Assembly: GCA_035235625.1 (NCBI GenBank) | Contig: CP141141.1 | Span: 4,278,001-4,342,000, forward strand | Length of the DNA stretch: 64,000 nt | Direction: 5' to 3' | Source: Saururus chinensis | Taxonomy: Eukaryota > Streptophyta > Magnoliopsida > Piperales > Saururaceae | Shown here: piece by piece, positions 51,654-58,744 of the stretch | Position numbering within the stretch: the first letter of the stretch is position 1 | Layout: each line of letters begins with the position of its first letter | Program-made: the position numbers and the translations under genes | The notes under the pieces: generated by a model | Seen by the model: the letters and a program-made list of their open reading frames with translations, nothing else | Told to the model about the DNA's origin: nothing | The model's database searches: none

Positions 51654-51936
51654 TACTACAAAAAAAACTAGGTAAAAACGACATATAATAGCGTCGCCTG
51701 CTTAAACATCAATATTAACAATTATATGCGACGGCTCTTAAACCTATTTAAAAACTATTAGCGGCGGCTATATGGCCGTCGCTAATAGGGTGCATTTGCT
51801 GAAAAATTGGCTTTCCCCCAGTGTTTTCCCTTCCCCTCCCCTCTACCGCGCCATATTTTCCCTGACTCAGATTCTCACCTCCTCCCACTTCCACCCTCGC
51901 TTCCCTCTTCCTCCCTTCTCACATGCCCCTTCCGCC

Positions 51937-52163
51937 ATGACCCTCTTCCTCCGCTGCCTCTTCTCCCCCGTCGCCGCTACTGCCGCCGTCAAGACACCAC
52001 CCTCTGGACTCCTGCCCCTCTATCCTCCGTCGACTCTGCCGCCGTGTCCCTCTTCCACGTCTCCGTCGACCTCTGCGACTGCCCCGACGTCACCGCCCCC
52101 TATTCCACGTCCCCACGCAATGCTTTTGGGGAAGAAGCTACCAAACTTTTGATCGTGATGCAT
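51937..52163 (+). pseudogene. Captured N-terminal fragment, probably a pKIWI502-like oxidoreductase
   Basis: After an ATG in good context (CCGCCATGACC), MTLFLRCLFSPVAATAAV looks like a plastid transit start. In the next frame, RQDTTLWTPAPLSSVDSAA and SLFHVSVDLCDCPDV follow. As I recall the family, this resembles the N-terminal region of plant pKIWI502 (fruit protein) FAD/NAD(P)-binding oxidoreductases. A single-base loss near 51985 separates the two frames. The flavin- and nucleotide-binding parts are absent. It is the first of three captured fragments in this element. Confidence 0.5.
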
Positions 52164-52662
52164 CAGTGCTTCGAGTCATCATCTGGGTCTTTCCCAATGT
52201 ATACTTTCCCTTTCTCTTAAGTCCTTACTTCACCCACTCTCCCTCTCCTATTTTTCCTTCTTTCCGTCATTTCTTCAGGTTTCTATGTTTTGTTTTCTTA
52301 TGTGTAATCCGCTCGGGTTTTGTAGAAGCAACGATAACAGTGGAAGAATTTCACATTCCTGACATTGCTGCGTTGAGCCGTGGCGTTATGCTCACGATTA
52401 ACATACTTTTTAACTTCACGTATTTATAGTTTCTGATGAAGATATTCGTTTTCAACACTTGTCAGGTTCAATTTTTAGCTCCAAGTTGAGCAACATTGCG
52501 TGGGACTCATCTTCTCTGCTGTGTTTTGATGCTTTAAACACCGTAAATTTTTGCTCCCTTTCTATATCTGCATGCATATTTTCAAGGCACATGCTTCTTT
52601 CTGCCCGCATTTGGCATCTGACATTTTCTTGCTATGGTTGATAGGGTTTAAGTGACTAGGAG

Positions 52663-53262
52663 ATGGGGGATCATCAAAATGGTATCCTACCAACTCAGCT
52701 TGCCATGGATAGGCCAGCTGATAAAACAGGGGATCAAAAGGTTTTTCATTAGTCTCTTGCCCATTTAATTACATTATCATCTTCCATTTCTATATCATTG
52801 TCTTTTGTTCCAGTCTCATTAACTGTCTCACAGACAGTTCGTAGGCTTGCTCAGAATCGAGAAGCAGCAAGAAAGAGTCGTTTGAGGAAGAAAGTGAGAC
52901 TATTTTCTGACCTAGGCTTTGGTACACCAGAAAATTTTACTGTATTATGAGGCAACTTTTCTTCTATTTTGTTGATTGATGAAGTCGTTTTTTAGACAAT
53001 AATATTTCCTTCATCTGTTTCTAGAGTTTCTTCAGTCTTAAAGCCAAGGAATTCACGTTTCCTTCTCTCTATTTATTCTCTTTTCATCTCAGATAGTGAA
53101 ATTGAAGTTAGTTTGCATTTTATTTGCTGATTTGTAACTCTCGCTTGCAGCTGCTTGTTGGCCAACTTGAACCTTTGACTGATCAACAACGGATGGGAAT
53201 ATGTAATCTACAACAATCCTCTCAGCAATCTACAACAAGTGCCTGTTTGTGGTTAGATATAG
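52663..53262 (+). pseudogene. Captured TGA-type bZIP fragment, three exons
   Basis: Exon 1 (from an ATG at 52663 to 52740) reads MGDHQNGILPTQLAMDRPAD. Exon 2 (52834-52893) reads TVRRLAQNREAARKSRLRKK, the basic region of TGA-type bZIP factors. Exon 3 (from 53151) reads LLVGQLEPLTDQQRMGICNL followed by QQSSQQS, the C-terminal part of the TGA DOG1-like region. The exons for the leucine zipper and most of the DOG1 region are missing between the last two. TGA factors bind TGACG (as-1) elements and partner NPR1; this copy lacks dimerisation sequence. Introns are retained, so capture was at DNA level. Confidence 0.88.
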
Positions 53263-53449
53263 TTGCTGCCAGTGCAAAATTTTATGCTCTCATCTTCTGA
53301 CATAAATCTGGTATAAAAATGATCAGTTTGCACATGACTCAATAATATGCTTCGGTGTGAAACTAGGACTTGTCACACCTTCTAATTCTGGAGGGTAAGA
53401 AAATATGGAACAAGATATGAGTACGGTTTACAAAATTGTGCTCTGGCAG

Positions 53450-54322
53450 TGGATGGAAAGCTAAAAGTTGATTATCAGGTGATATCTCAACTTTTTGGAT
53501 TGTCGTTGTTTCCTATTATTGGTCAAGTATAATAAATCCCTCTTTTTATTAAATCATGGTCTCCTATGAACAATATGTAATGCTTATACATGGCAGATTT
53601 TGCTCTTTTCTTTTAATGGTCTTATTGTTTTGAAAATATTAGTCATAGCTCCTTTATTAGCAGTACTTGAAAGTTCAAATTACTGATGCATGTTACGATA
53701 ATACACTATAAATTTTCTGAGGACTGAAGGATAGCTTGGAAAAAACTTTCGTTTACGATATTACAGGGAACAGAAATATGTTTGCAGCGACCATGGAGGA
53801 GTGCAGCACAAATGCTTTACCATGTAGATCATTTATCTGCTGAGCAGCTTAATGTTATAATTGGACTTTATTGTTAAGAGAATTGCTTTTTAATTATTTT
53901 GCAATTCCTTCAGTTGATCTAGGTATTTGAGGTCGTTGTTGAATCCAGACTCATGCAACCTACATTTGTCTTGGACTATCCTATCAAGGTATCTCCACTG
54001 GCTAAACCACACGGGCTGTAAGTTTAATTGAAATACATATTTATTAATAAATATATCTGTTCTCCGTATGATCTTCTATAAAGAAGATAGCTTGTCTCCT
54101 GAACTTGTGTGATTCCTTTGTATCAATATTTTAGTTGTGCTCAAGAACGCTTTAATTACTCATTCTGAGCTGCTGCTACCTTTAATGTTCTCCCAGCTAT
54201 TCTTTCGCCTTTTATGTTAATGATGTTCAAATCAGCCATGCAGGTTTGACAGAACGGTTTGAATTATTTATGTGGTCGGAACTGGCAAATGTATTTTCTG
54301 AACTGACTGATCCCATGACCAG
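53450..54322 (+). pseudogene. Captured lysyl-tRNA synthetase fragment, four exons
   Basis: Four segments with splice-like borders encode class II lysyl-tRNA synthetase sequence: VDGKLKVDYQ (53450-53478), GTEICLQRPWRSA (53767-53820), VFEVVVESRLMQPTFVLDYP then IKVSPLAKPH (53923-54017), and LTERFELFMWSELANVFSEL then TDPMTR (54244-54322). They include motif-2-adjacent and active-site-region segments in the correct order, of the bacterial/organellar type. The second exon runs out of frame at its end. The anticodon-binding domain, motif 1 and motif 3 are absent, so no enzyme can be made. Retained introns indicate DNA-level capture. Confidence 0.88.
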
Positions 54323-56739: not shown

Positions 56740-56895
56740 TGAAAAAGTATACCCTCATGCAGACATATGAAGACAATGTAACACAAACCTTGAATCCTCC
56801 AGCTTCTTCAATAAGTGCAGTTATTAAGAATGAAGGTTTGAACTCTCGAGTCATTAGGTAGTTCATGACAGAAAATTCTCCATATGAGGGAACCT
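56740..56895 (-). pseudogene. Exon-like segment of unknown gene inside the Harbinger-type element
   Basis: After an acceptor-like CTGCAG, the minus strand reads VPSYGEFSVMNYLMTREFKP followed by SFLITALIEEAGGFK and then a donor-like GTTTGTG. The composition is exon-like and the borders fit an internal exon of about 105 nt. I do not recognise the family. It is probably a captured host exon. Confidence 0.4.
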
Positions 56896-57513
56896 GCAGA
56901 ACAAAGTCAGAAATTAATCTCAAATTGCAAGGGCGAGAAAATTTCATTTGACTTGGGAGCGGAGCAAGAATCTAGTTTAAAATAGAATTTGAATATTCCC
57001 TTGAAATACCATGTCTAGGAAGATGTCACAAGCCTTACTAGCAAGATAACACCCACAAGACAGAGCCCAGCATATAGCCACCAGCATGAACAATATATTC
57101 CACCATATAAATTGATGGAAATAAACAACGATGTCCTAAATGCATGATCAATGCCCACTTACCAAAGTCAAAGTCCAGTCCAAATCAAAACTAGTATCAT
57201 TAGGGGATAATCCTTTGCCCCTTAACGATTGATAGAAATTGATATTGCCTTTACATGATGTATGGCTGGTATCTAGTTGCTTTCTATATCAGCTGGTTAG
57301 AGTTTAGCTATTCACTTGTTTTGAAATGGAGAACCTTCACTTCATGGTCATTACTTGTTGTTGCTGCCTTTTTCTAACTTTTCCATCCTCTGAAGTTCTG
57401 ATCTTGTCTTCTTTTAGTGTTCTTATTTGTGTACTATAAACCTGTATGTTCATCATTTTTTCATCTACTCAATGCAAACCTGTATGATAAACCTTTATGT
57501 TATCCTTGTACAG

Positions 57514-57790
57514 GCCAGAACCTGAGCCTTTCCAGCATTTATCCCAAAACGAGCAGGTGATCATAATGAGCGGCGGAACTATAAGGAATTCTGTACCCTT
57601 TGCAAGCACTGAATTAGTAGAAATTCAGAAACCAGATAAGCAATCAGAGGCTGGCTGGTCTCCCACAATTTCCAGTAGCTTGCTCAAGGCAGACGAGATA
57701 GACTCATGGTTCCAGAACATTCCTGATGATGTTCGAGTCCCAGAGGATGAGTTCCCATACTTGCAGTGTAGAAAGGGTAAACGGGGTTAA
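57514..57790 (+). pseudogene. Exon-like segment of unknown gene, plus strand
   Basis: After a TTGTACAG acceptor-like site the frame reads PEPEPFQHLSQNEQVIIMSG, then contains AGWSPTISSSLLKADEIDSW and FQNIPDDVRVPEDEFPYLQC before a TAA at 57788. The protein-like composition over about 90 codons and the splice-like start suggest a captured last exon or a truncated exon. I cannot name the gene. Confidence 0.4.
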
Positions 57791-58099
57791 CACCAACAAT
57801 AATTCAATAAACTAAACAATTTTAATAAATAAGATTCAAAAGTGTCACATATCAAATGGACGCGTAAATGCAACGGAGAGTGTGAACTTGAATTCATAAA
57901 AAGATCATGATTTGAACTTATTAAAAAAAGGCACAACGGACATATCTATCGAATTTCAGAACGGACAATCTATGTATGTTCAGGCAAATCTGACCATCAT
58001 AAAATCAAATGAATGAAGATGCAAAGTTATGCAGCAATATTGGGAGGAATATATTGACAATAAGAATTCAAGCAAAAAAAAAATGATTTCTTTGAGTAA

Positions 58100-58440
58100 T
58101 CAACGAACCTGTCTGCTCCTCCCCAGGCGATCTTGGTGTTCTTCGCGTTTTATAGGGACGCCGAGAAGAGAACAACTGGCAACGCGAGAAGGGAGGCAAA
58201 GCCCCGCATCCGGAGGAAGTAAAGAGATTAGTGGGAGCCTTGTGCCGGCGGGGAGCTCCAGACGAATCCGGGATGAAGTAGACAATGAGAAGATGGAGCC
58301 GCTGGCCACGAAGGTGAAGCTCCACCATCCGATTTCCCTATCATACAACGGCACGACCACCGCTTCAGCCGGCAGCAGCAACGATGGGCAGAAGACCTCC
58401 CCGGTCAGTATTCAATTCGAGGGAGGGACAGGCTTCAAAC
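58100..58440. other. GC-rich segment in the Harbinger-type element, possible captured first exon
   Basis: GC content rises sharply over 340 bp and both strands stay open for more than 80 codons. Neither strand gives a sequence I recognise. It could be a captured 5' exon or promoter region, with the minus-strand exon-like segment at 56.8 kb as a possible partner. Confidence 0.3.
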
Positions 58441-58744
58441 TTTCAATTCAGCAAATCAGCCGGGCAAATGTATCTGATCTTTGGGTTATAAAATTACACC
58501 TAATCTCACTTTTTTACTTAATCAGTTAAAAATTTAGCTCGTAACAAACAGCCTGAAAAGCCGGCTTTTGGCTGGCTTTTAAGTTACTTAATCAGTTAAG
58601 ACCTAATTAAGGTAAACAAACAGACCCTTATAGTGACTCAAGCAACTGCGATGGTTGACTTGTCGATGCTATTCTCTATAGCAATGGCTATAGATAGTTA
58701 CAACGATGCCTCATGGCCGTTGCTGATTTCTCTCCTGCTAGATG

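What the first reader, a model, noticed from the sequence alone, without database searches (positions are those of the whole stretch)
51654..58740. One CACTA-like element carries fragments resembling three unrelated genes, all in the same orientation
Seen: probable pKIWI502-like N-terminus (51937), TGA bZIP basic and C-terminal exons (52663-53262) and lysyl-tRNA synthetase exons (53450-54322), all on the plus strand with introns kept, between GCGACGGC subterminal repeats. Known: CACTA and Pack-type elements can transduplicate host gene pieces. Inference: the shared orientation would allow one chimeric transcript beginning at a transit-peptide-like ATG, a possible seed for a new gene or for small RNAs against three parent genes.
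Basis: partly seen in the sequence, partly recalled or inferred. Interest (0 to 1): 0.8.

Follow-up and report, generated by a model that had tools for sequence, protein, structure and literature searches.

The report
Decayed jumping gene carrying host-gene scraps
A worn-out plant transposon has picked up broken pieces of at least three ordinary genes from three different places in the genome and lined them up in one direction; this is a well-traced example of a known kind of gene shuffling, with no sign yet that it makes anything useful.

Summary
Between CACTA-type ends (51654 to about 58741) lie pieces of a pKIWI502-like, a TGA3-like bZIP and a lysyl-tRNA synthetase gene, in element sense with introns. 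Their source loci in the same genome are on contigs C10, C2 (the window's own, 49 Mb away) and C6. The cargo is larger than reported: two further segments match C9 and C1, plus a multi-copy repeat. Most of the right end, 55843-58627, is a separate PIF/Harbinger-like insertion. A sibling on C10 shares the 5' start and the pKIWI502|TGA junction at an unrelated site, so that fusion moved. Another lineage of this CACTA family carries a ribosomal L10-type and a DEAD-helicase piece, also in sense. Coding potential is poor: the transit-peptide frame shifts after about 17 residues; TGA zipper and DOG1 exons are gone. This copy has no target-site duplication and a degenerate 3' end. Best reading: a decayed Pack-CACTA relic resembling soybean Tgm-Express1. 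A chimeric transcript is possible but untested.

The parts
51654..51798 (+). 5' terminus (TACTACAAAAAAAACTAGG) and GCGACGGC subterminal repeats
   Evidence: Sibling L008 starts with the same 14 bases; 83% over 84 bp to sister element L066, which starts CACTACAAAAAAAACTAGGCAAC
51860..52107 (+). Segment A: exon 1 of a pKIWI502-like gene (parent C10:25.384M), frame-shifted
   Evidence: 229 of 252 ungapped positions over 51860-52112; 15-bp and 1-bp gaps
51937..52152 (+).
52108..52664 (+). Segment B1: 5' part of the TGA3-like gene (parent C2:53818560-53819138)
   Evidence: 89%; joined to B2 at 4-bp microhomology AGAT
52661..53054 (+). Segment B2: TGA exons with bZIP basic region (parent C2:53819743-53820137)
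   Evidence: 93%
53054..53231 (+). Segment B3: TGA exon after DOG1 (parent C2:53822380-53822557)
   Evidence: 96%; the parent's zipper and DOG1 exons lie in the 2.24 kb missing between B2 and B3
52663..53300 (+). Hypothetical spliced 95-aa frame (52663-52740, 52834-52893, from 53152): basic region without zipper
   Evidence: splice dinucleotides kept; 14 of 216 exon bases differ from the parent, 5 in synonymous and 9 in nonsynonymous codons
53248..53437 (.). Segment C: piece of a multi-copy repeat
   Evidence: matches at 15 other places listed, 84-94%
53433..54404 (+). Segment D: lysyl-tRNA synthetase piece in two parts joined at 53801 (parent C6:27935058-27936780, minus strand)
   Evidence: 93-94%, 753 bp of parent missing at the join
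54428..54921 (.). Segment E: matches C9:3082297-3082782(-); inner part also C11 and C4
   Evidence: 93%, and 91-92%
54798..55547 (+). Segment F: matches C1:56347927-56348672(-), upstream of an LRR receptor-kinase-like frame on the same strand
   Evidence: 90%; LRR_1 in that frame
55569..55839 (+). 3' subterminal repeats, first part
   Evidence: about 70-83% to many other places
55840..58630 (.). Separate nested PIF/Harbinger-like element (55843-58627) with TTA duplications 55840-55842 and 58628-58630
   Evidence: C3:45242012-45244801 97%, also flanked by TTA; ends GGGTCCGTTTGTTT, 13 of the first 15 bases inverted-repeated
58631..58741 (+). 3' end of the CACTA element, degenerate (CTCCTGCTAG where sisters have TTTTTTTGTAGTG)
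   Evidence: with the insertion left out, aligns continuously to sister 3' ends, e.g. L041 72.7% over 359 bp

Best explanation
It is a decayed, non-autonomous CACTA element that works, or worked, like a Pack-CACTA. It collected pieces of at least three host genes (pKIWI502-like, TGA3-like, lysyl-tRNA synthetase), a piece of a repeat and two further segments with matches on C9 and C1. The TGA and synthetase pieces lack inner parts of their parents, most simply by deletion. The pKIWI502|TGA fusion is found at two sites beside the same kind of 5' end, so it moved with that end (shown). That the remaining pieces were gathered in the same way, by joining of host DNA between CACTA ends during transposition or repair, is inferred. 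A PIF/Harbinger-like element later inserted into its 3' end (shown). As it stands it is most likely an untranslated pseudogene cluster without function. Any RNA would most likely come from outside or from the 5' subterminal region and be spliced variably at the kept introns, as in Tgm-Express1 (inferred).
For: Parents located, with the missing exons in place. Subterminal repeats at both ends, above chance. Sister elements on C2 and C5 match the 5' and the 3' subterminal parts in the same order on one strand, about 6.3 and 11 kb apart, and the 3' part aligns to sister 3' ends across the later insertion. L008 has the same first 14 bases, similar repeats and the same A|B junction with an unrelated left flank. 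Divergence from the sources is K2P 0.047-0.075 in 7 of 8 segment comparisons; the GC-rich A is 0.092. A CACTA element with tnp2 transposase and TTT on both sides lies at 11155-25108 of the window.
Against: No target-site duplication, no canonical 3' terminus, and 5' TACTA rather than CACTA in this copy. Apart from A|B (L008) and the E to early-F stretch (C9 locus), no other copy of the composite showed, which score best candidates only; so only the first fusion is proven mobile. TGA and KRS pieces also occur in other multi-copy repeats, so these pieces were available by other routes too.
Confidence: 0.8

Rival explanations
1. Only A|B was carried by the CACTA element; pieces C to F were added at this site later, for example as filler DNA in break repair or as independent insertions.
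For: No second copy of the junctions B|C, C|D or D|E showed; C is a piece of a common repeat; no target-site duplication.
Against: C to F lie inside the 3' subterminal repeats; D, E and F diverge from their sources about as much as B does (0.062-0.074 against 0.047-0.075); another lineage of the family carries several gene pieces in the same kind of place.
Confidence: 0.17
2. A new chimeric gene in the making, for instance a 95-aa protein with a TGA basic region and no zipper, kept by selection.
For: Frame open across three kept exons with intact splice dinucleotides and a new ATG at 52663.
Against: 5 changes in synonymous and 9 in nonsynonymous codons give no sign of constraint, on small numbers; no zipper, no DOG1; the upstream pKIWI502 frame is broken; no expression data; no second copy of the whole composite found.
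Confidence: 0.04
3. A source of small RNAs that act on the three parent genes.
For: About 89-96% identity to the TGA and KRS parents; all three pieces in sense, so antisense read-through could target the parents.
Against: No inverted repeat of 24 bp or more found in 51640-55850; such identity is low for efficient targeting (general knowledge); no small-RNA data.
Confidence: 0.08

Closest known systems
Tgm-Express1 of soybean (CACTA, wp allele; PMC1947982, passages read)
   Same: Non-autonomous CACTA element of 5.7 kb with exon and intron pieces of five unrelated host genes; the pieces are spliced as cassette exons
   Different: There it sits in a gene intron and is transcribed; here no transcript is known, the ends are decayed and a Harbinger-like element is nested inside
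Pack-CACTA / Pack-TYPE elements (PMC8903248 and review PMC13317346, passages read; the Arabidopsis study was not held)
   Same: CACTA-type ends and captured coding DNA; maize Pack-CACTAs hold DNA from more loci than other Pack types
   Different: That annotation asks for terminal inverted repeats and a target-site duplication, which this copy lacks in intact form
Grapevine CACTA transduplicates (PMC2528002, passages read)
   Same: Host gene pieces inside CACTA elements
   Different: A PPR piece there lies in the opposite orientation to the element; the three identified genes here are in sense
Maize Helitrons with stepwise capture (PMC3288121, passages read)
   Same: Several unrelated gene fragments added in steps
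   Different: Different transposon type; Helitron ends were not searched for here

Membership tests
Pack-CACTA | CACTA terminal inverted repeats | tested here: inconclusive
   5' TACTACAAAAAAAACTAGG, first 14 bases shared with L008, first base differs from the CACTA start of L066; 3' end degenerate CTCCTGCTAG
Pack-CACTA | 3-bp target-site duplication | tested here: not met
   GGT on the left, ATG or AAA on the right, read; three other CACTA elements in the window, paired by me from the lines, have matching triplets. Hence 'relic that worked like a Pack-CACTA', not an intact member
Pack-CACTA | Subterminal direct and inverted short repeats | tested here: met
Pack-CACTA | Captured host coding DNA with parents elsewhere in the genome | tested here: met
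Pack-CACTA | No transposase of its own | tested here: inconclusive
   nearly all of 51654-55839 matches parents, repeats or sister copies, and by eye no transposase-like frame stands in the list of frames of 45 aa or more; Pfam was run on only six frames of the interval, with 0 families at E 0.1
Pack-CACTA | Cargo moved by transposition | tested here: met
   L008 shares 5' start and A|B junction, left flanks unrelated at E 1e-3; for the segments after B not shown

The most novel reading that the evidence does not exclude
This CACTA family takes up, or keeps, gene pieces preferentially in the element's own sense, so that it strings host exons into sense pre-mRNAs, and the TGA piece gives a basic-region-only peptide. 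In two lineages whose ends could be placed, 5 of 5 pieces identified by parent or by family search are in sense (pKIWI502, TGA, KRS; L10-type, DEAD helicase). The first three prompted the question, so the independent test is 2 of 2; weaker cases make it 7 of 8.
Probability: 0.1. Interest if true: 0.6.

Novelty: new member of a known kind. Interest (0 to 1): 0.38.

Why it matters
It is a well-traced case of gene shuffling by a cut-and-paste transposon: the gene pieces have located sources, joins in the TGA piece can be read to the base, and a sibling shows one step of assembly. If the sense bias of the family proved general, it would say something about how capture works or what selection keeps.

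Tried and rejected
A native three-gene locus was rejected for this genome: the parents lie on C10, C2 and C6 (related species were not looked at). Pfam on the pKIWI502-like parent frame gave 0 families, so that name rests on recall. Pfam on two frames of the nested element gave 0 families.

I asked whether sense orientation is a family rule. I fetched eight stretches of 7.4-7.8 kb that end at sister 3' ends (8 of the 12 places) and read their frames of 62 aa or more by eye (frames over 150 aa were cut in print, and of L073 only those from 4500 on were shown). Only L073 showed a match to the 5' end, so the other seven have no element bounds; six more kb upstream of L074 gave no 5' end either. 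L074 holds an HCO3_cotransp piece in sense (9.4e-8) and an AIF-like piece in sense by eye only, which Pfam did not support. L070 holds a weak IQ motif (0.014, below cut-off) in antisense. These were left out of the 5 of 5 because bounds are missing; counting both L074 pieces and the IQ motif gives 7 of 8. An unknown frame shared by L066 and the C5 copy is in sense and was left out. C5 and L066 share cargo and count once; the 3' terminus of the C5 copy was not found. The orientation of segment E is not settled; F is upstream DNA of a receptor-kinase-like frame and was not counted.

The host species was not identified. The exact 5' pattern of L066 was found once in the genome.
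Full report
What was checked. I read the interval and compared it with the same genome in four pieces; these searches score best candidates only, so absences are not proof.

Sources of the cargo. Segment A (51860-52107) matches exon 1 of a gene at C10:25.384M(-); the alignment runs over 51860-52112 with 229 of 252 ungapped positions alike. That parent reads MTLFLRRLPHRRLFSPVAAAAVRQDTTLWTPAPL and on into a long frame; I recognise it as pKIWI502-like from memory, and Pfam gave no family. 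Segment B matches one gene on C2 in three stretches (89, 93 and 96%). The parent's DOG1 exon at C2:53822027-53822248 and a frame that I read as its zipper exon (AYVQQLESSRSKLAQLEEEIQRARQQV) lie in the 2.24 kb that the element lacks. Peptides of the parent match TGA3 in the PDB at 4.6e-73. B1 and B2 are joined at a 4-bp microhomology, AGAT, with 604 bp of parent missing. Segment D matches C6:27.935-27.937M(-) in two stretches with 753 bp missing. tRNA-synt_2 exons flank it at 27936948-27937049 and 27932407-27932481. The parent peptides match lysine-tRNA ligases, best 1.5e-33; that it is the organellar, bacterial type is recalled. Segment C (53248-53437) is a piece of a repeat with matches at 15 other places. 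Segments E and F match C9 and C1. They overlap by 124 bp that both source loci share, so that switch point cannot be placed. F lies upstream of an LRR receptor-kinase-like frame.

Bounds and nesting. 55843-58627 is a separate element with TTA on both sides and a copy on C3 at 97%, also between TTA. Leaving it out, the 3' part aligns continuously to sister CACTA 3' ends, several of which finish in TTTTTTTGTAGTG; the best is 72.7% over 359 bp. The 3' end here, near 58741, is degenerate and I found no target-site duplication. The 5' start at 51654 is supported by L008, which starts with the same 14 bases TACTACAAAAAAAA. The exact GCGACGGC count in the window is 4 against a mean of 0.14 in 100 shuffles. 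With one mismatch the density is 20.7 and 14.3 per kb in the subterminal stretches and 9.0 in the 3' tail, against 1.1 in the cargo, 1.0 in the left flank and 0 in the nested element.

Evidence of movement. L008 (C10:22.247M, minus strand) has the same start, similar subterminal repeats, segment A, the same A|B junction and about 310 bp of B1. Its left flank shows no match to the window's at E 1e-3. In the shared part of B1, 7 sites set the native gene apart from both copies, 6 are private to the window and 6 to L008; in A the numbers are 9, 10 and 18, with 2 sites where all differ. The tree is star-like, which suggests that capture and duplication were close in time. Divergence from sources (K2P): A 0.092, B1 0.074, B2 0.075, B3 0.047, D1 0.063, D2 0.063, E 0.070 (54428-54797), F 0.074 (54811-55547).

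Family context. L066 (C2:30.536-30.543M, minus strand) has a CACTACAA start and a 3' end in TTTTTTTGTAATG, and carries Ribosomal_L10 (2.2e-11) and DEAD (1e-22) pieces, both in sense. The C5:46.306-46.317M copy shares this cargo at 90-94%; its 3' terminus was not found. So the family captured genes more than once. TGA pieces also occur in other multi-copy repeats (L011, L012, L030; L013 to L016) and KRS pieces in a further one (L004, L005, L055). A CACTA element with tnp2 transposase lies at 11155-25108 of the window.

Coding potential. The ATG at 51937 opens 71 aa, but a 1-base deletion takes it out of the parental frame after about 17 aa. A splice of 52663-52740, 52834-52893 and from 53152 would give 95 aa with a basic region and no zipper. 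Over 216 exon bases 14 differ from the parent, 5 in synonymous and 9 in nonsynonymous codons, which gives no sign of selection, on small numbers.

Orientation. Three pieces in one direction has a chance of 1 in 4. Over two lineages 5 of 5 pieces are in element sense, 1 in 32 if orientation were random; but the window's three prompted the question, and the two in L066 alone have a chance of 1 in 4. Weaker cases left out of this count, one antisense candidate among them, are listed under tried and rejected. Grapevine has an antisense CACTA case (PMC2528002, passages). One search of the held library for 'CACTA', 'captured', 'same orientation' and 'gene fragments' returned only PMC8903248; the passages shown (12 of 23 places) speak of the orientation of neighbouring elements, not of cargo. 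I make no claim that a bias is unreported.

Comparison with the literature. Tgm-Express1 in soybean carries five unrelated gene fragments in a CACTA element and its pieces are spliced into chimeric transcripts (PMC1947982, passages). Pack-CACTA elements in maize contain DNA from more distinct loci than other Pack types (PMC8903248, passages). The proposed capture route, neighbouring insertions excised as one hybrid, is described in PMC13317346 (passages), which adds that another, undiscovered route may exist. CACTA elements with captured gene fragments are also reported in Chenopodium (PMC8978399, passages). The present case fits these and adds a sibling that shows one step of assembly.

Verdict. 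A real, decayed multi-gene element of the Pack-CACTA kind; ordinary in kind, well traced. Functional claims remain untested.

Noticed in passing
window 11155-25108: CACTA element with TTT on both sides, tnp2 transposase (PF02992, 9.9e-85), DUF4218, DUF4216, Transpos_assoc and a weak Transposase_24 match below cut-off
   Followed up: partly
window 4077-9993 and 58899-63580: Two more CACTA elements, paired by reading, with matching 3-bp duplications (TTA and TGG); the second starts just after the finding's element
   Followed up: no
window 55843-58627: The nested PIF/Harbinger-like element is itself a mosaic: stretches match C11, C9 and C10, the last two abutting near 57765; possibly a Pack-PIF inside a Pack-CACTA.
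   Followed up: partly
L011, L012, L030 and L013 to L016: Fragments of the same TGA gene sit in other multi-copy repeats, with further shared sequence beside them; no DOG1 match was listed at those places
   Followed up: partly
L004, L005, L055: A piece of the same KRS gene sits in another repeat family; L004 and L005 are 91% alike over 2.16 kb
   Followed up: partly
L038 (C9:3.080-3.084M): This locus matches segment E of the window and, next to it, cargo of the L066 lineage; native gene or third element not decided
   Followed up: no
window 42023-43078: 351-aa frame with C2H2 zinc fingers (zf-C2H2_6, 3.7e-27, three stretches)
   Followed up: no
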